Assembly (NCBI RefSeq): GCF_003952425.1
Contig: NZ_CP034449.1
Span: forward strand, 4,278,001 to 4,342,000
Source: Mesorhizobium sp. M2A.F.Ca.ET.046.03.2.1
GTDB taxonomy: Bacteria > Pseudomonadota > Alphaproteobacteria > Rhizobiales > Rhizobiaceae
Direction: 5' to 3'
DNA length: 64,000 bases
Under the pieces are notes generated by a model. The model did not search any database. It was not told the origin of the DNA and saw nothing but the letters and a program-made list of their open reading frames with translations. Within the stretch, counting starts at the first letter, position 1. Each line of letters starts with the position of its first letter. A program made the position numbers and the translations under genes. This document shows positions 12,322 through 29,362 of the stretch, piece by piece.

Positions 12322-12445
12322 AGAGCAGGATGACGCTTCGTTGAACCGTCATCCTGCTCCAACTCTTGTTGTTTGAGCATGATCTCGCCCGAAAACCGGT
12401 TCCCACTTTTCGCTGACGCGGTCCTTCGGTTCGGGATCATGCTCT
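12322..12445. repeat. RIME-like mosaic repeat, copy 1
   Basis: Two palindromic modules: AGAGCAGGATGACG paired with CGTCATCCTGCTC (12322-12359), and GAGCATGATC paired with GATCATGCTC (12375-12445). The latter carries the inner motif GAAAACCGGTTCCCACTTTT. Closely related copies are at 29264-29362 and, decayed, at 25401-25499. It resembles the rhizobial intergenic mosaic element RIME1 from memory. Confidence 0.8.
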
Positions 12446-21266: not shown

Positions 21267-21281
21267 CGCCAGTCGGGGAAC

Positions 21282-21303
21282 GCAATTCCGCACGGAAACC
21301 GCG
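21282..21303. repeat. half copy of palindrome family A
   Basis: GCAATTCCGCACGGAAACCG matches only the left arm of the family A unit. The right arm (GGAATTGC) is not found downstream. It lies between tlpA and the STAND gene and could mark an old breakpoint. Confidence 0.5.
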
Positions 21304-21383
21304 CTGCTGCTGGTGCGCCGAGAGGTGAGGCATCCACCGCGACGAATTTTTCGGCTAAATCGCGAAACATAAGCCGGCCGCGT

Positions 21384-21564
21384 TCATTCAAAGCGACCGC
21401 TTTCCGCCCGGTCTTTCTCCAACTCCTCGCGTCGTTCTTTGGCTATCGTTTCGGCGAGCCTGGCGCGCGTTTCCTTGACCGTCGCGATCAGGCCTGGGTT
21501 GGTTCCGGTCTCAAGCCGGTCGAGCAAGTTAAGGCGAACCTCGCATTCCGTCGCGTACGACCCC
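21384..21564 (-). pseudogene. out-of-frame C-terminal tail of the STAND gene
   Basis: This stretch continues the 1,214-residue reading frame if one G is removed from the run of five G (plus strand C run 21561-21565). It then reads GSYATECEVRLNLLDRLETG and ends EKDRAESGRFE followed by TGA. An acidic/basic helix ending in RFE is what large STAND ATPases of this kind often have, from memory. In the sequence as given the downstream part is out of frame. It may be a true frameshift, a base-calling error in the homopolymer, or a recoding site. Confidence 0.6.
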
Positions 21565-24500
21565 CTCAAAGCTTCTTGGCCAGAGGTTAATCTCTTCAAA
21601 CACCGCGACCGGGTCAGGCGCGCGCTCCAAAAGCGCTTTGGCGATTGGCCGCCATTCCAGCGCGGCCGTACCATCGTAGCGGGTGAAAAGCTCGGCGACG
21701 GCAGCAGCAAAGGGATAGCGAGGTTCCGGGTCGGCCGCACACCATTCTAAAATGACATGATCTGGAACCTCACTAACCGGATTTGGATGGCCGTGCATCA
21801 CATCCTGAACGATATCAATGCTGTTCCGGCGATCCTGCTCGTTACCCGCAACGAGCTCGTCCAGCATGATTACAGGTTGGATCTTGAATAGGGCTTGCAA
21901 AAGGTCGTTGTGGTCCCAGGCGTAAACCTCGTCCTTCTCAATGGCCGCTTTCAAGTCGCGCCATATCTTGCGTGCAACGGGAGCGCCTTCTGGCCCGTTC
22001 AAGCAGCTCTTTGCGATACCGCCCAGTGTGTGGTCACTGTGATCAATTCGCCTGGGATCTGGCTCGAATGAATGCCGGCTAAGAAGAATGCGCCCAGCCT
22101 CAAGTGTTTCAGCTTTTGGCTTCCGTCCCGCGCTGCCGTCCGAATGTAGGCGCATCATGACGATTTGCAGGGCGATGGGATAGCCGTCGGGTTTCGCAGC
22201 AATCGCAACCACTAGGTCACGAAATGCAGGTCCCGGAATTGGATCGCAAACGCGCCCGCCAACCAGAACGAAGAAGTCGTGGGCAGTGACCTTGCCAAGC
22301 TCTAAGGCGCGATGGAAGCGGCCAACACCTACCTCATCGATCGTGACGCTCGCCTGAAGATCGACCAGCCATTTGCCGAGAACGGCATCATCTACGGCTT
22401 CATCAAGGAATGCCTGTGTTGCCGTGGCTTCCTTTGTTTGAAGCCCATTGAGGAAGCCACGCAACAGTTGCACATTTGGCTGTTGGGCTGAGGCCACTTG
22501 GGCGGCCAATCGCTTCCACATGACGCGCGGCTCGTCCGCGCCCAGGGCAAGTCCCTGCCCAAATTCGAAAAGCCGCCCATGGCCGCCGATGAGTTCCGGA
22601 AGGACTGTAGCGAGAGCTTTTTCGTCGGCTGCGGCTTCTTTTCCAAATTCCACAACAGCCTCGGCGACGCGCTTCAAGCGCTCGGCAATGTCCATTTCGT
22701 CATCATCCTCGAAGTCATCAAGGCTGCCTCCTCTTTCTCCGAGCACGATTCCCCGTACGCTATCGATCAAATCCTTCGGTCTTAAAAATTCCTCCAGTTC
22801 GGTAAGGCGTTGCAGTGCCCGGGCATCCAGCATTTTCGCGCTGTATCGCCGGGTTTGCCGTGTTGCGATCCAACCCTCGCGCCAAAAACCGTCCTTGGCA
22901 ATTGCCCTGGAGATGCGCTCCAGCGCGTAGTACTGGCCCGCATTCGCCCAGAGGCCTCGAAATTTGCGGGCGATGCTTTTCTGAACCCGTACTCTGACTT
23001 TGCTGTCATGTAGCGCGAAGGGTTCCGCTGTCTTGAGCACATCGCCGAACCACTGATCGTACTCGGCTTTACTCTTTGGATGGTAGCCATAGTCCCGCGA
23101 CCGCGCGCCGAACTCAAAACTGGAATAGGGCCTGAAGTGCTCGGTTGTCATCATGGCTTCCAACGCCTTGACGCCGAGATGGCATTCAACCGGCATGTCT
23201 GATTTTAGAAATTCTGTCGCTACTTCGAGGCGCATCGACAACGGTGCGTGGGTCGCGGAAAAAGCGACGTAGAAGAGAGGCGCGATTGCCTTCTCGGCAT
23301 CGCTGTCGACCACCACACCATGCATGCCCGCGAACTTGCACAACAATGCCACGGAACGTTTGAACAATTCAGCGTCATAGGCGAGCGCATGCAACAGCCG
23401 GATAAGAGGTGCGCCGGCCAGTAGCGCATCCACGTCTGTATTGGCGAAGCTATTCTCAAGCGCGGAAAGTGTTGCTCGAGGCTGTACCGGCGCGACATTT
23501 TCGAGCATCGCGTGGCCAAGCGGGTTTAGGTTCGACACATCGAAGAGAAGGCCGCCCGGTGCAAGCCAGCCTTTGGCGATGGCCTGGGCCTCCTTGCTGC
23601 TGTCGAGATAGCCAAGGCGGCGCGAGAAAGAGCGCAACAGGCGCTCTGACGTCCCATTCACAATCGCGGCTTCTATAATGGAATAGGGGATATTCTGAAG
23701 AGCCAGTTCCGCAAGTCGGTTTGCGATAGCGTGGGGCAAGATCGCGCGCCATTCCCCACGCTTTTGCAAAAGATCCCGCCGCTTCAGTTCAGCGGCTGCG
23801 GTGAACACCTCCTGGGCGGTCTTTCCGATCAACCCGCCGAGCACGGGCAGTTCCGCATTCTCGCCCGTCAGGTCTTCCCCTTGAAATGAGTAAACCAACG
23901 AACAGGCTTCCGCGATTTGCAACAGCCCCGCATCGTGCTCGTGGCGTTGCTGGAAGAGACGCTTGAACAATTCGGTGTGGGTGAGCCCAGAGACCGTCTC
24001 GGTTTTCTTTACGGTGCCGGCAAGCGCAAGTGCTATCCGCGCGTTGCCGCCTGAGAACTCGGCAATCCTGCGGCTGTCGAGCTGTGATAAGTCCGGGAAG
24101 CGACCCGCCACCAATTTTGCGATCAGAGGCACCGACGATGTTTCCAGCGAGAAAACGTCTGTGCCTTCTGGCTGATCCTCGCGGATGTCATATTCTACGG
24201 TGATGGCGCTGACCGCTGAGCCCGAGGCACGCACCACCTCCGATAGGTGCCGGTGCGTTTCCGGAGGGCAGTTGTCAATCACCAAAATCGCGCGCGTGCC
24301 GGCCGCGGTCAGCTCAGAGGCAAGAACCTTTGGCTGTGGATCAGGCCCATCGGCAACGTCGGTATAAAAGGCGAGGCAAGGGTCCAGCGCGTTCGCGCCC
24401 ACAGTATTGTCAAACAAGGCTTCGACCAGCCGTGTCTTGCCAACACCTGAGAGGCCAACAAGACGAACAACCTGACCTGGTTTTCGCAGCGCATCTCGCA

Positions 24501-25173
24501 TGCGGTTGATGCCATCTACGGCCGACAGGCCTTCACCATCGTCTTTGTTGCCCGTCTTGATGCGTGCCTCGTCATCAAGAAGATAGCGTTTATCCGCGCC
24601 CGCCGGCACGCTTGACCAGTCCCCGTAAGACTTCCACCCGGGGATGGGCCTTCTAACCCGGGAACGAACCCACGCAATCAGCCCCGGATTGGCACGCACC
24701 CAGCTCGCGATACGATTGCGGTCATAGAAGTCGAGATGCAGCTTTTCGGCGTCAGCAATGCTGTTTACCGCTTCCGCCATCGCCGCTCGGCGATTGTTAA
24801 GCGCTGAATCGGCGGTGGATCCACTTGAGCTTACGATGATGTAGGCGCCATCCGCGGCAGCCAGTTCCTCAATCACCGGACGAATGACGCCATTCGGCCT
24901 CATTTCCTTCGGAATCTCCGATCGGGGCATGTCAGGCTTCTTCACCTGAAAGCCGGTTGCGGCCCTTGGTATGAAGCCCTCGATCTTGCTTCCTGCGGGC
25001 AGCGCCACACGCACATCAACGCCGCCGTCTTTGGCGGTTTGGTCGCCGCCCCAAGTCGCCGCAGAGACAGGGAGATTCGCGCGCTGGAGCGTGGCCTCGC
25101 AGAGACGGCCGATTAGCGACCGCAAATTTTCATCGTTCAGTGCAGCAATATCGTCGCGGGTGATCTCGAACAT
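21529..25173 (-). CDS. nuclease-STAND NTPase, putative anti-phage protein
   Basis: A 1,214-residue protein. Residues about 38-80 look like a PD-(D/E)xK nuclease of the Mrr/Cap4 kind: GGVDVRV (Asp53) and FQVKK (Gln76, Lys78). A P-loop GLSGVGKT lies at 240-247, a Walker B ILVIDN at 297-301, and a GGNARIALALA motif at 375-385, as in STAND NTPases. Residues 400-1214 are mostly helical, probably sensor repeats. This is the order of Avs-type defence proteins (effector, STAND, sensor), so a role in recognising a phage protein and cleaving DNA is inferred, not shown. The gene stands alone, and its codons are less GC-rich than the neighbours. It ends early: about 55 more residues are out of frame downstream. 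Confidence 0.72.
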   Translation of the reverse strand: MFEITRDDIAALNDENLRSLIGRLCEATLQRANLPVSAATWGGDQTAKDGGVDVRVALPAGSKIEGFIPRAATGFQVKKPDMPRSEIPKEMRPNGVIRPVIEELAAADGAYIIVSSSGSTADSALNNRRAAMAEAVNSIADAEKLHLDFYDRNRIASWVRANPGLIAWVRSRVRRPIPGWKSYGDWSSVPAGADKRYLLDDEARIKTGNKDDGEGLSAVDGINRMRDALRKPGQVVRLVGLSGVGKTRLVEALFDNTVGANALDPCLAFYTDVADGPDPQPKVLASELTAAGTRAILVIDNCPPETHRHLSEVVRASGSAVSAITVEYDIREDQPEGTDVFSLETSSVPLIAKLVAGRFPDLSQLDSRRIAEFSGGNARIALALAGTVKKTETVSGLTHTELFKRLFQQRHEHDAGLLQIAEACSLVYSFQGEDLTGENAELPVLGGLIGKTAQEVFTAAAELKRRDLLQKRGEWRAILPHAIANRLAELALQNIPYSIIEAAIVNGTSERLLRSFSRRLGYLDSSKEAQAIAKGWLAPGGLLFDVSNLNPLGHAMLENVAPVQPRATLSALENSFANTDVDALLAGAPLIRLLHALAYDAELFKRSVALLCKFAGMHGVVVDSDAEKAIAPLFYVAFSATHAPLSMRLEVATEFLKSDMPVECHLGVKALEAMMTTEHFRPYSSFEFGARSRDYGYHPKSKAEYDQWFGDVLKTAEPFALHDSKVRVRVQKSIARKFRGLWANAGQYYALERISRAIAKDGFWREGWIATRQTRRYSAKMLDARALQRLTELEEFLRPKDLIDSVRGIVLGERGGSLDDFEDDDEMDIAERLKRVAEAVVEFGKEAAADEKALATVLPELIGGHGRLFEFGQGLALGADEPRVMWKRLAAQVASAQQPNVQLLRGFLNGLQTKEATATQAFLDEAVDDAVLGKWLVDLQASVTIDEVGVGRFHRALELGKVTAHDFFVLVGGRVCDPIPGPAFRDLVVAIAAKPDGYPIALQIVMMRLHSDGSAGRKPKAETLEAGRILLSRHSFEPDPRRIDHSDHTLGGIAKSCLNGPEGAPVARKIWRDLKAAIEKDEVYAWDHNDLLQALFKIQPVIMLDELVAGNEQDRRNSIDIVQDVMHGHPNPVSEVPDHVILEWCAADPEPRYPFAAAVAELFTRYDGTAALEWRPIAKALLERAPDPVAVFEEINLWPRSFEGVVRDGMRGSP

Positions 25174-25497
25174 TAGCCGAAATTGGGGGGGACTTGAGTA
25201 AACGTCAAATTACGTGTTCAAGTTCACGTGGGTTTCCACAAGAGAGACTGTGAGGAACGAAGAGTCCAAATCTCATATTGCGGATCTAGTTCCGCCAAGG
25301 CGAGCAGATTGGGTTTGCCTTAGCCACAGCGCTTCGTTCGCAGATCAGTCGGCCAAGCGATGCGCCGCTGGAAGCAGGGAGTGCGATCGCGTTCCGTCCT
25401 GCTACAACACGACGTTTCGTTGAACCGTCATCCTAATTTCATCATTTGTCACACCAGAATCTCCTTCGAAAGCGGTTTCCACTTTTGGGGTCCTGCT
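25174..25497. other. gap with decayed repeat, no gene seen
   Basis: The 324 bp upstream of the STAND gene hold no convincing frame. The right part (25401-25499) is a decayed RIME-like mosaic. The STAND promoter must lie at the left end, but no clear -35/-10 pair was found. Confidence 0.6.
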
Positions 25498-25499
25498 TC
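25401..25499. repeat. decayed RIME-like mosaic, copy 3
   Basis: ACGACGTTTCGTTGAACCGT and GCGGTTTCCACTTTT match the two modules of the copies at 12322 and 29264, but the outer palindrome arms are eroded. It overlaps the stop codon of the MHYT gene at 25498. Confidence 0.65.
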
Positions 25500-27972
25500 A
25501 GCCTGAACGCGCGGCCGCTGCCGGCTGCAGCATCAGGATGCTGCCGCCCCGGACATTTTCGACCTTGGCGGTTGCCGCGTCTTCCTTGACGCCGTCATCG
25601 GCCGCCGGAACACCCGTGAGCTCGCTGAACGCCTCGATCGGGCCGGGCCTGCCCAGAAAATATCCCTGGCCGATGTCGCAATCCTCGGCATCGAGGAAGC
25701 GCAATTCGTCGAGCGTCTCGACGCCTTCGGCCAGGACCGGCAGGCCGAGGCCGCGCCCCAGGCCGAGCACGGCGCGCACGATGGTCGCGACCTGGCCGTT
25801 GCGGTCGACCGACTTGATGAAGGACCCGTCGATCTTGATCTTGTCGAAGGGGAAGGCGCGCAGGTTGGAGAGCGAGGAATAGCCGGTGCCGAAATCATCC
25901 ATCGCCACGCGTACGCCCAGCGCCTTGATCTGACGCAAGGTGGCCAGCGCGCGCGGCATGTCCTTCACCAACGCCGTCTCGGTGATCTCGAGCTCGAGCC
26001 GGCCCGCCGCCAGGCCGGTGCGAAGCAGCACCTCATGCACCTTGCGGCTGAAATCTGGATTGTGAAGCTGCACCGCCGAGACGTTGACAGCGACCGTCAG
26101 CGGGTTCTTCCATGTCGCGGCCTCCTCGCAGGCGGTCGACAGCACCCACTCGCCGATCTGGGCAATCGAACCGCTATCCTCGGCCACCGGGATGAACACC
26201 GAAGGCGGAACCTCGCCGCGGTCGGGATGCTGCCAGCGGAGCAGGGCTTCGAAGCCGATCATCCTGCCGCTGCTGATTTCCTTCTGCGGCTGATAGACGA
26301 GCCGGAATTCGCCGCGCGCCACTGCCTGGCGCAGATCCTGCTCCAGGCTGCGCCGGTCGCGCGCCTCGGCACCCATGGAGGCCTCGAAATAGCGGAAGGT
26401 GTCCTTGCCTTCGGCCTTGGCGCGATAAAGCGCGGTGTCGGCATGGCTGACCAGCGCCGCCTGTTCGTCGGCATCGAGCGGGTAAAGCGCGATGCCGATG
26501 CTGGCCGACACCATGCCGCCGGGCGACAACCGGTTTTCCTGGCGCAGAGCCGAAAGCACCGCCTCGGCTATGCGGCCCGCCGCCTGCGGGTCAGGAAGGT
26601 TGGGGGCGATGATGGCGAATTCGTCGCCGCCAAGCCGGGCCAGCATCTGGCCGTGGCGCAGCACGCTGGAGGCGCAGTGAGCCACCTTTTGCAGCACGGC
26701 GTCGCCAGCGGCGTGGCCGAAGAGGTCGTTCACTTCCTTGAACCGGTCGAGGTCGAGCAGCATGAGCGCCAGCTGGCTACCTTTGCCACTGCTTTTGCCA
26801 TCTGGCGCGGACGCGGCGATCTCGGCTTCCAGACGGCTGGCGAAGCTACGGCGGTTGGCAAGGCCGGTGAGCGGGTCGTAATTCGCAAGCCGCATGATCT
26901 CCTGTTCGGCCTTCCTGCGTTCGCGTATGTCGCGCACGGCCACGACCAGATGCGGCTTGCCGCAATAATCGATTCTCCTGGCGATCAGCTCCACCGGTAT
27001 CCGGCTGTCGTCCTGACCGCGGAGGTCGGCTTCCTGCGCCTGTCCGTTGCCGGTGGCAACGGCCGACGCAATTCGTTCGCCGAACAGCTCGCCCAGCCTC
27101 ATCGTGTTCAGCGCGCCGGCGGCGATGCCGCTCAGCGCCGCGATGCTGTCGTTGGCGCTGACGATGCGGTTGCCGTCGCAGACGATGAGGCCTTCGACGG
27201 CAGCATTGGCGAGGCCGTGCATGCGCTCCGCCTCGATCCTGTGACGGCGGAAGCGCAGATCGATCCACAGCGCGGTGGCCGCCAGCACCAGGATGACGAG
27301 GCTTGCCGTCGCGGCTGCGAAAGCCTGCGACATCGGAGCGATCGTGAATTTCGAGATCTCGATCGAGGAATCCGGATAGATCGAGACGGCGGCCATGGCG
27401 ATGAAATGCAGCGTGCAGATCGCCAGCGTCAGCAGGACGGCACCGGCGACTGTCGCCAGGGTCGACGGGCGACGCAGCACGATAAACAGCGAAAGCGCGG
27501 CAAGTGATATACCCGAGACCAGCGATGCCGCGACCAGCAGCTGGTTCCAGACGATCCGACCTTCGACCTCGAAAGCCGCCATGCCGGTATAGTGCATCGC
27601 CGCGATGCCAATGCCGAGCACGGCGCCACCGACGAGATAGTGGTCGATGCCGGTGCGCACGGTTGCGATCCATATCCCAGCGGCCGTCAGAAGAACGGAA
27701 ACCGCCAGCGAAGCGACCGAAAGCTCGGCGTTGTAGGCGTTGGGTATTCCCGGCGTGAAGGCGATCATGGCGATGAAATGCGTCGCCCAGATGCCAAAGC
27801 CGGTGGAAGCGGCGGCAATCAGCAGCCAGGCATAACGGTTCCGGCTGGTCGATTGCACGACATGGCGGAGCAGATTGACAGCGGTGAAACAAGAAATTCC
27901 ACAAATCAGCGCGGCCAGTGCGACCAGTCTCAGATCGTGCTCGTTCACGATACAATTATAGACGGTCAACAT
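25498..27972 (-). CDS. MHYT-PAS-GGDEF-EAL c-di-GMP turnover protein
   Basis: An 824-residue inner-membrane protein. The first ~235 residues form an MHYT sensor with seven helices and His motifs (WATHFIAM at 62-69, AMHYTGM at 125-131, LHFIAM at 188-193), thought to sense a gas through copper. A PAS-like segment (250-350), a GGDEF domain with intact RLGGDEF (446-452), and an EAL domain with EALLRW (575-580) follow. Both catalytic motifs look intact, so it could make and break c-di-GMP. It is transcribed towards the STAND gene and upstream of nothing else. Confidence 0.93.
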   Translation of the reverse strand: MLTVYNCIVNEHDLRLVALAALICGISCFTAVNLLRHVVQSTSRNRYAWLLIAAASTGFGIWATHFIAMIAFTPGIPNAYNAELSVASLAVSVLLTAAGIWIATVRTGIDHYLVGGAVLGIGIAAMHYTGMAAFEVEGRIVWNQLLVAASLVSGISLAALSLFIVLRRPSTLATVAGAVLLTLAICTLHFIAMAAVSIYPDSSIEISKFTIAPMSQAFAAATASLVILVLAATALWIDLRFRRHRIEAERMHGLANAAVEGLIVCDGNRIVSANDSIAALSGIAAGALNTMRLGELFGERIASAVATGNGQAQEADLRGQDDSRIPVELIARRIDYCGKPHLVVAVRDIRERRKAEQEIMRLANYDPLTGLANRRSFASRLEAEIAASAPDGKSSGKGSQLALMLLDLDRFKEVNDLFGHAAGDAVLQKVAHCASSVLRHGQMLARLGGDEFAIIAPNLPDPQAAGRIAEAVLSALRQENRLSPGGMVSASIGIALYPLDADEQAALVSHADTALYRAKAEGKDTFRYFEASMGAEARDRRSLEQDLRQAVARGEFRLVYQPQKEISSGRMIGFEALLRWQHPDRGEVPPSVFIPVAEDSGSIAQIGEWVLSTACEEAATWKNPLTVAVNVSAVQLHNPDFSRKVHEVLLRTGLAAGRLELEITETALVKDMPRALATLRQIKALGVRVAMDDFGTGYSSLSNLRAFPFDKIKIDGSFIKSVDRNGQVATIVRAVLGLGRGLGLPVLAEGVETLDELRFLDAEDCDIGQGYFLGRPGPIEAFSELTGVPAADDGVKEDAATAKVENVRGGSILMLQPAAAARSG

Positions 27973-28151
27973 CTTGCTTCACCTGATCTTCCCACATCAA
28001 TCAAGGCAACGGAATTGATTAGGGCCCGGCAGCTGAAGAATCGGTTATGCCGCCCGCAACCGCTGCGTGCGTCCCAGGTTGTATCTGTCAGGGAGGCCAT
28101 GCCTGGAATCATTGGGCCGAGCCAGCGGGAATTGGTCGATCCTGAAGGCCG

Positions 28152-29204
28152 TCACTTCACCCGCACCGTGACCACCAGCGCCTCGTGGTCGGCGCTCGGG
28201 CTGCCGTCCGGCAAGACCGCCGGCAGCGTCGCGGGTGCGCTTGCCGAAGGGCCGCGGGTGAAGAACCAGTCGATATGGCCGGCGGGCGTCAGGTCGCCGG
28301 CCGCGCGCCGCTGCGTCGGCTTGTCGAAGGCGTTGGCCTCGCGCCAGTCGTAGCCACGCTCGGCAAACACCGCGAACAAGGGCTCATGACGCTCCGGGCA
28401 CATCAGCCGGTCCGGTTCGGCGGCGATGCGCTTTCGCCACGCGTCTGGGTCGTCATTGCGTTCGGGATAGGTGGCGGTGAGCGTGTTGAAGTCGCCGCCG
28501 ATGAGAACAGGCGTTTCCGCATCATATCTGTCGATGGCATCGAGCAGATGGCGGGTCTGGTCGGCGCGGCCTGCTGGCGTGGTGCGGTTCTCGAGATGCA
28601 CCGAAACGACGGTCACACGGCGGTCGCCTAACATCACCTGGCCGCCGAGCGCCATGCGGCCGCCGATGCGTGGCTGGCCGTGCTCCGGCAGGAACCAGGC
28701 GCCAGCGGCGTCGAAGCGAACGAGAAAAGGCCGCAGCAGCGGAACGGTGCTGGTTATGGCGTTGCCGTGGAAGCCCTCCGCATTCTCGGCGCCGCCATTT
28801 GCCGCCTGCTCCGTCTCATTGCCGGTGCCGAGTTCGAGGAACTCGACGCCATAGGCGTAGGAATGGCCCAGGCGATCAGCAAGCCGGCTCAAAAGATGGC
28901 CGTTGCCGGAGCGCGCCATGCCCTTGTCGACTTCCGACAGCAGCACGACGTGTGGCGCCTGGCCGGCGATGATTTCGGCGATGGCATCAACGTGGCGCAG
29001 CCGCTCGACATTCCAGGCCATGACGGTCAGGCTCTCACCGGCGCTTTCACGCGAAGCCTTGCCGCCGATCTCAATCTCGCCGAGGGCGGGAACGGCGGCG
29101 GCGTGGCGCAGATGGGTGGCGCTGTCGCGCGGCCCGTCCCGCATGGCGTTGCGGACGGCGACGGGCACGTGCGTGAGCTGCGGAACCAGCATGTCTTGTC
29201 TCAT
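28152..29204 (-). CDS. endonuclease/exonuclease/phosphatase-family protein
   Basis: A 350-residue EEP-fold hydrolase. Catalytic motifs are VMAWNVERL (near 61), LLSEVDKG, TVVSVHLENR, LIGGDFNT, and the terminal SADHEALVV His. Such enzymes cut phosphodiester or phosphate ester bonds with Mg2+. No signal peptide is evident; the first ~55 residues are polar and may not all be coding, so the start is uncertain. Substrate unknown. About 180 bp without a gene separate it from the MHYT gene downstream. Confidence 0.82.
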   Translation of the reverse strand: MRQDMLVPQLTHVPVAVRNAMRDGPRDSATHLRHAAAVPALGEIEIGGKASRESAGESLTVMAWNVERLRHVDAIAEIIAGQAPHVVLLSEVDKGMARSGNGHLLSRLADRLGHSYAYGVEFLELGTGNETEQAANGGAENAEGFHGNAITSTVPLLRPFLVRFDAAGAWFLPEHGQPRIGGRMALGGQVMLGDRRVTVVSVHLENRTTPAGRADQTRHLLDAIDRYDAETPVLIGGDFNTLTATYPERNDDPDAWRKRIAAEPDRLMCPERHEPLFAVFAERGYDWREANAFDKPTQRRAAGDLTPAGHIDWFFTRGPSASAPATLPAVLPDGSPSADHEALVVTVRVK

Positions 29205-29263
29205 TCAGTTAGCCGGTTAATCAAAGAGGTCTTTTCACCGCTTGGCGGCGCCCTAGCTACCTG

Positions 29264-29362
29264 ATCAGGATGACGTTTCGTTGAATCGCCATCCTGATCC
29301 AATTCTTTGTTGGAGCATGATCTTGTCCGAAAACCGGTTCCCACTTTTCGGGATCATGCTCT
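29264..29362. repeat. RIME-like mosaic repeat, copy 2
   Basis: ATCAGGATGACG pairs with GCCATCCTGAT, and GAGCATGATC pairs with GATCATGCTC around GAAAACCGGTTCCCACTTTT. It is the best-kept copy in the window and lies between the EEP gene and ugpB. Confidence 0.82.

What the first reader, a model, noticed from the sequence alone, without database searches (positions are those of the whole stretch)
21384..25173. Solitary nuclease-STAND NTPase: candidate single-gene defence system
Seen: an N-terminal stretch with GGVDV and FQVKK, a P-loop GLSGVGKT, ILVIDN, GGNARIALALA, then about 800 residues of helical sequence. Known: Avs-type anti-phage proteins have an effector, a STAND core and a sensor. Inference: it senses a phage protein and cleaves DNA. 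The gene stands alone in a core region, is less GC-rich than its neighbours, and has repeat remnants on both sides (21282-21303, 25401-25499).
Basis: partly seen in the sequence, partly recalled or inferred. Interest (0 to 1): 0.78.

Follow-up and report, generated by a model that had tools for sequence, protein, structure and literature searches.

The report
Solo relative of PD-λ-4 phage-defence protein
A soil bacterium carries a recently acquired, slightly damaged gene for a large one-protein immune receptor, related to one half of a known E. coli anti-phage system, that probably senses a virus protein and then cuts DNA.

Summary
Window 21384-25173 (minus strand) carries one long gene: a nuclease-like N-terminus with invariant D49/D53/Q76/K78, a STAND P-loop core (K246) and about 700 residues of helical repeat. 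The open frame is 1214 aa; the family's last ~60 residues lie in another frame. It is not an unknown kind: PADLOC matches it to PD-Lambda-4_A (E 4.5e-295), component A of an E. coli phage-defence system, 32% identical. The E. coli partner B is absent from this genome and from 67 of 67 genome loci with enough 3' flank. An AlphaFold model (pLDDT 87) has Avs3 bound to terminase as its best PDB match. Five relatives have an alpha/beta-hydrolase in place of the nuclease: a swappable effector. The gene is an insertion: 0 of the 29 best-matching congener loci have it at this site; 14 of 146 genus genomes, this one included, have any match. Best reading: a B-less PD-λ-4A, NLR-like immune receptor, recently impaired in this strain or mis-sequenced. 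The nuclease fold is likely, not shown. No function was tested.

The parts
21529..25173 (-). Solo PD-Lambda-4_A-like gene, open frame of 1214 aa
   Evidence: ORF; PADLOC PDLC03991 E 4.5e-295 over residues 1-1204; 32% identity to E. coli A
24604..25173 (-). N-terminal effector, residues 1-190, PD-(D/E)XK-like with D49, D53, Q76, K78, E90
   Evidence: Residues invariant in 58 of 58 and 39 of 39 rows; AlphaFold topology; sub-threshold Foldseek matches to Mrr and VRR-NUC
23734..24603 (-). STAND NTPase core, residues 191-480: P-loop G240-T247, Walker B with N301, GGN-x-R at 375-379
   Evidence: Conservation; model; Foldseek to Avs3, STAND-TPR, EfAvs5, NOD2, Apaf-1, NRC
21562..23733 (-). C-terminal helical solenoid, residues 481-1204, presumed sensor
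   Evidence: Nearly all-helical model of residues 481-1195; Foldseek also matches HEAT-type karyopherin and CAND1 solenoids
21387..21572 (-). Family's conserved C-terminal tail, in another frame than the ORF
   Evidence: 62 codons, 81% identical to the M. temperatum tail; 68 of 69 relatives over 1200 aa have FE at or one residue before their end
21303..25493 (.). Inserted segment, about 4.2 kb, relative to empty sites in congeners
   Evidence: L110, L112, L114 and L117 match the window up to 21302 and again from 25494 with about 20 bp between
21280..21298 (.). Left half of an interrupted dispersed intergenic palindromic repeat
   Evidence: whole element present at empty sites such as L110
25411..25434 (.). 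Second short dispersed repeat on the right side
   Evidence: 24-nt matches at 12332-12355 (96%) and 29272-29295 (92%)

Best explanation
The gene encodes a B-less homologue of PD-λ-4A, a single-protein, NLR-like (STAND) anti-phage receptor. Proposed mechanism: the long helical solenoid holds the protein off and binds a phage protein made during infection; binding lets the STAND core exchange nucleotide and assemble; the N-terminal PD-(D/E)XK-type domains are brought together and cut DNA, stopping the phage, probably at the cost of the cell. Shown here: architecture, conserved residues, homology to a protein of a known defence system, one effector swap in the family, lack of a conserved partner in the loci checked, horizontal acquisition. 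Inferred: trigger, assembly, DNA cleavage, cell death. In this strain the 3' end of the frame is broken, so this copy is probably impaired, or the sequence has an error there.
For: PADLOC PD-Lambda-4_A E 4.5e-295; 32% identity over residues 1-1193 to the E. coli A protein, itself 2518 bits against the model. The E. coli PD systems, six of them selected with lambda-vir, were confirmed by plating (PMC9519451, part read; its text does not name PD-λ-4). Model pLDDT 87.3; best PDB match Avs3-terminase, then STAND-TPR, with EfAvs5, NOD2, Apaf-1 and NRC proteins among the first 16. Nuclease-type and P-loop residues invariant in 58 of 58 rows. Five relatives carry an alpha/beta-hydrolase in place of the nuclease, joined before the same W-x2-Y-x2-W linker. 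Patchy distribution: 14 of 146 genus genomes and 11 of 397 phylum genomes, both counts with this genome; 43 plasmid records; 15 viral contigs. dN/dS 0.16 against M. temperatum.
Against: The nuclease fold is not significant in either Foldseek search and Pfam names no nuclease. TM-score to Avs3 is low (0.15 on the query), and HEAT-type non-immune proteins score nearly as well as some STAND hits. The frame is broken. No match in 50,697 phage records. The text that I saw does not say whether PD-λ-4 acts by cell death.
Confidence: 0.72

Rival explanations
1. Orphan, non-functional half of a two-gene system: PD-λ-4A needs B, and solo copies are decaying leftovers.
For: This copy is frame-broken; 4 of the 14 genus genomes with a match hold only fragments and 1 (G020) a distant copy in two pieces.
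Against: 0 of 67 genome loci with at least 2 kb held 3' of the gene have B; full-length solo copies occur in many phyla; dN/dS 0.16; the two A+B rows share a clade with five solo copies that could be checked; B is found without A (L153, L155) and is split in E. coli EC71 while A is whole.
Confidence: 0.15
2. STAND receptor that is not anti-phage: it excludes plasmids or other elements, or has a regulatory role.
For: No trigger known; the family is found on plasmids (43 records) and here in a chromosome among ordinary genes.
Against: The E. coli homologue belongs to a system named from a lambda selection (PMC9519451); swappable effectors and an Avs3-like fold point to conflict with invaders.
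Confidence: 0.1
3. The N-terminal domain is not a DNase but acts on RNA or another substrate.
For: No significant fold match.
Against: D-x3-D and Q-x-K at neighbouring strands, invariant, are the usual PD-(D/E)XK pattern (recalled); the best sub-threshold hits are Mrr and VRR-NUC in BFVD, and SgrAI is rank 2 in PDB.
Confidence: 0.2
4. The frame break is a sequencing or assembly error and the strain's gene is intact.
For: A single late break in an otherwise constrained gene (dN/dS 0.16).
Against: The genome is one contig, 100% complete by the table; no reads are available here.
Confidence: 0.4

Closest known systems
PD-λ-4 (Vassallo et al. 2022, E. coli), component A
   Same: Same protein family over the whole length, same nuclease-type residues, P-loop and C-terminal FE tail
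   Different: No B gene; alphaproteobacterial chromosome among ordinary genes; 32% identity; frame-broken here
Avs (AVAST) types 1-4
   Same: Effector-STAND-solenoid order and STAND fold; Avs3 is the best PDB match
   Different: No Avs profile among PADLOC matches; solenoid also resembles HEAT-type proteins; trigger unknown
Avs5 (SIR2-STAND; EfAvs5, PaAvs5)
   Same: STAND core; structural matches 9jap and 9nc9; C-terminal helices essential for immunity there (PMC12931631, passages seen)
   Different: Effector is SIR2, not nuclease-like
Eukaryotic NLR and apoptosome proteins (NOD2, Apaf-1, NRC2)
   Same: STAND NTPase fold
   Different: Effectors and sensors differ; sequence relation is at most a weak P-loop-region match (Roq1, E 0.023)

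Membership tests
PD-Lambda-4_A protein family | Match to the PADLOC A profile over its length | tested here: met
   E 4.5e-295, profile positions 3-1225 of 1283
PD-λ-4 system | B component beside A | tested here: not met
   PDLC03992 has no match in the whole genome
PD-λ-4 system | Protection against phage when cloned | not testable with these tools
   No experiment possible
AVAST / Avs | STAND NTPase core with N-terminal effector and C-terminal repeat sensor | tested here: met
   Model and Foldseek; effector swap in relatives
AVAST / Avs | Sequence match to an Avs profile | tested here: not met
   Only PD-Lambda-4_A models hit at E up to 1
AVAST / Avs | Activation by terminase, portal or another phage protein | not testable with these tools
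   Needs co-expression
PD-(D/E)XK (Mrr/Cap4-like) nuclease | Fold match | tested here: inconclusive
   Mrr E 0.055 and VRR-NUC E 0.099, both prob 0.80, in BFVD; PDB none at E 0.001 or below; Pfam none
PD-(D/E)XK (Mrr/Cap4-like) nuclease | Acidic residue and Q/E-x-K at adjacent core strands, invariant | tested here: met
   D53 just before strand 54-57, Q76/K78 in strand 72-78; 58 of 58 rows

The most novel reading that the evidence does not exclude
PD-λ-4A is not half of a two-gene system but a widespread single-protein NLR-like immune receptor family, distinct from Avs1-5 in sequence, with swappable effectors (nuclease or serine-hydrolase), a HEAT-like sensor and an almost invariant C-terminal Phe-Glu tail that takes part in control. 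B is a late E. coli-lineage accessory, so detection rules that demand A+B overlook most of the family.
Probability: 0.5. Interest if true: 0.62.

Novelty: new variant of a known kind. Interest (0 to 1): 0.47.

Why it matters
If A works alone, a defence system known from a two-gene E. coli locus becomes a broad family of one-gene immune receptors across Pseudomonadota, Bacillota, Chloroflexota, Acidobacteriota, Verrucomicrobiota and others (rows of the tree). The natural effector swap gives a direct test of which half senses and which half kills. It also warns that two-gene detection rules can miss the commoner form; that PADLOC and DefenseFinder ask for both genes is recalled, not tested here.

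Tried and rejected
Avs membership by sequence: rejected, no Avs model among PADLOC matches. Pfam and NCBIfam naming: only weak P-loop or chance hits. Nuclease naming by sequence profile: none for 39 N-terminal domains in Pfam or in PDB sequences; the whole-protein profile met PDB chains only at E 0.023 and above. Conserved partner gene: none among neighbours of the relatives; the largest cluster was 5 loci of short, probably spurious ORFs. Defence-island enrichment: 78 neighbours scanned (of 153 nearest and 285 in all that one search listed); 202 defence profiles matched, but the tool does not say how many proteins and there was no control, so nothing is claimed. Phage collection: 0 records. 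Repeats as ends of a mobile element: not supported; the left one fits the dispersed intergenic repeat of the target. Hydrolase form in E. coli DNA: no match. Literature: PD-lambda-4 terms gave 2 relevant papers (one search also listed one unrelated). Of PMC10952713 I saw passages and part of Table 1; of PMC9519451 the outline, some passages and parts 2 and 3 of 8; of PMC12931631 passages; of PMC13268207 only the listing. Figures and supplements of PMC9519451 were not seen, so its drawing of PD-λ-4 is unknown to me.
Full report
What is there. The window is part of a 7.37-Mb single contig; the nearest named relative of the gene is in Mesorhizobium temperatum. On the minus strand at 21529-25173 lies a 1214-aa open frame. 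Neighbours are ordinary chromosomal genes (argH and a TlpA-like gene on one side, an MHYT-GGDEF-EAL gene on the other; names from reading the translations). GC is 58.0%, GC at third positions 63.4%, against 64.2% for the window.

The 3' end. Relatives of full length are about 1250-1280 aa. In the window the ORF leaves the family sequence at about residue 1204, and the remaining 62 codons lie in another frame at 21387-21572, 81% identical to the M. temperatum tail. Of 69 relatives longer than 1200 aa, 64 end in FE and 4 more have FE one residue before the end; 1 (L006) does not. In Avs5, deleting the last predicted helix abolishes immunity (PMC12931631, passage), so loss of this tail probably impairs the protein; that is inference. 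dN/dS against M. temperatum is 0.161 over 1200 codons, lowest in the STAND part, 0.088, so the gene was kept under constraint until recently, or the break is a sequence error.

What family. PADLOC: PD-Lambda-4_A, E 4.5e-295, two further A models, nothing else at E up to 1. Pfam gives only weak, sub-cutoff matches, mostly at the P-loop. The E. coli locus of strain FEX669 (L095) has an A gene of 1283 aa that scores 2518 bits, followed by a 303-aa B gene that scores 653 bits against PD-Lambda-4_B. Window against E. coli A: 32% identity, residues 1-1193.

The partner. B has no match in this genome. tblastn with B over the 155 loci then held, and the window, hit only L094, L095 and L142/L154 (E. 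coli-type A+B loci) and L153 and L155 (B, with no A hit) at E up to 0.1. Of the 80 loci, 78 could be parsed; 67 of these hold at least 2 kb 3' of the gene, and none has B; of 15 viral-contig copies, 13 hold at least 2 kb, and 1 (L142) has B. Among 14 control genomes B is found in one, Escherichia coli, and A in none (16, 66). In a tree of 89 cores the two A+B rows sit in an 8-row clade (support 100) with six rows labelled solo, of which five have flank enough to say so (L089); a second method on 62 rows agrees on that clade, but order inside it is unresolved (supports 27 and 32), so a late gain of B is suggested, not shown. A neighbour clustering found no other conserved gene. Limit: a very divergent B could be missed. 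The paper that defined the PD systems counted homologues that 'encode all components' (PMC9519451), so solo copies would not have been counted.

The effector swap. Of 132 loci with a core hit (some of them the same place twice), 17 had no hit to the window's N-terminal domain; most of these are fragments or diverged copies, but five (L079, L082, L090, L091, L092) have instead a region of about 300 residues with an alpha/beta-hydrolase-like start and a G/C-H-S-x-G-G elbow, running into the same W-x2-Y-x2-W linker. Pfam names Abhydrolase_6 and DUF676 in L090 and DUF676 in L091 above their cut-offs; L079, scanned without its first residues, matched the hydrolase part of a PADLOC DUF626_VIII model that L090 and L091 match too; L082 and L092 were named by motif only. 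The five form one clade (support 100) in both trees, so one swap explains them. This marks the N-terminus as an exchangeable effector and the rest as the sensing and switching part.

Structure. AlphaFold2 on residues 1-1195 with 58 rows gave pLDDT 87.3 and pTM 0.59. Residues 1-172 have the order helices, three strands, helices, strand, helix, strand, helices; D53 precedes strand 54-57 and Q76/K78 lie in strand 72-78. D49, D53, Q76, K78, E90, G240, K246, T247, N301 and R379 are the same in 58 of 58 rows. Foldseek against PDB: Avs3 with terminase (E 1.8e-8), a STAND-TPR protein, EfAvs5, NOD2, Apaf-1, AVAST5 filament and NRC proteins, mixed with HEAT-type solenoids such as transportin and CAND1; TM-scores on the query are low, 0.07-0.23 in the 50 rows shown. 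The N-terminal domain alone (pLDDT 87.8, pTM 0.85) has no PDB match at E 0.001 or below; rank 1 is a complex-I subunit and SgrAI is ranks 2 and 4 at E 0.29 and 0.59. In BFVD the two best are an Mrr-domain protein and a VRR-NUC protein, E 0.055 and 0.099, both probability 0.80. So a PD-(D/E)XK nuclease is likely, not shown.

The site. TlpA-region DNA was found in 146 of 146 genus genomes. I examined the 29 best non-self loci of that list: none has the gene there; in 19 the TlpA gene is next to the GGDEF-EAL gene, and in 10 the next gene is the one at window 28150-29260. Four loci place the insert at 21303-25493 with about 20 bp in its stead. There the empty site holds a whole copy of a dispersed 45-bp palindrome, of which the window keeps the left half; 64 whole copies lie in the genome, 0 for the reversed pattern. 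The M. temperatum copy shares only 21318-25221 with the window, and none of the 14 congener loci compared, with about 1.5 kb of flank, shares the window's flanking genes. In the genus, 14 of 146 genomes have a match: 8 nearly full length (this one included), 2 distant and partial or in two pieces (G022, G020), 4 fragments only. The family is in 43 plasmid records, 27 of them with one place covering 80% or more, 15 viral contigs and 0 phage records.

Mechanism and verdict. The best account is a one-protein STAND immune receptor: sensor solenoid, NTPase switch, nuclease effector. The trigger, oligomer, DNA cutting and cell death are inferred from Avs proteins (PMC12931631 says that Avs1-4 cut phage and host DNA after recognising terminase, portal or another phage protein; passage). 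It is filed as a member of the PD-Lambda-4_A protein family, not of the PD-λ-4 system (B not met) and not of Avs (no profile match), although it looks built to work like an Avs protein. The review PMC10952713 lists PD-λ-4 under a P-loop NTPase domain, and the PD-(D/E)XK row that I saw does not list it, so the nuclease-type N-terminus and the effector swap may be undescribed; the literature searches were only, and the figures and supplements of PMC9519451 were not seen.

Noticed in passing
window 5117, 12274, 54272, 61820 and genome-wide: A dispersed 45-bp intergenic palindrome (CGCAATTCCGGACGG... type), 64 copies at up to 3 mismatches, 55 forward and 9 reverse, 0 control.
   Followed up: partly
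window 25498-27972: The GGDEF-EAL gene between TlpA and the next gene is missing at this place in 10 of 29 congener loci examined: a second presence/absence change at the same junction.
   Followed up: no
L094 8898-9810: In E. coli EC71 the B gene is split into two frames while A is whole; 9 of the 10 listed rows also show two features under B.
   Followed up: no
L153, L155; plasmid hits H51-H55: PD-Lambda-4_B relatives occur without A in L153 and L155; on plasmids two Pseudomonas matches (H52, H53) touch a UvrD-type helicase gene (A not looked for there). B may belong to another system.
   Followed up: no
L101 1229-1314: One congener's nearly full-length A copy lies close to a sequence 78% identical to the window's tRNA-Leu gene, a possible integration spot.
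   Followed up: no
L060, L084 upstream of the A gene: A 379-aa ORF shared by two sphingomonad hosts lies just upstream of A; its function was not looked up.
   Followed up: no
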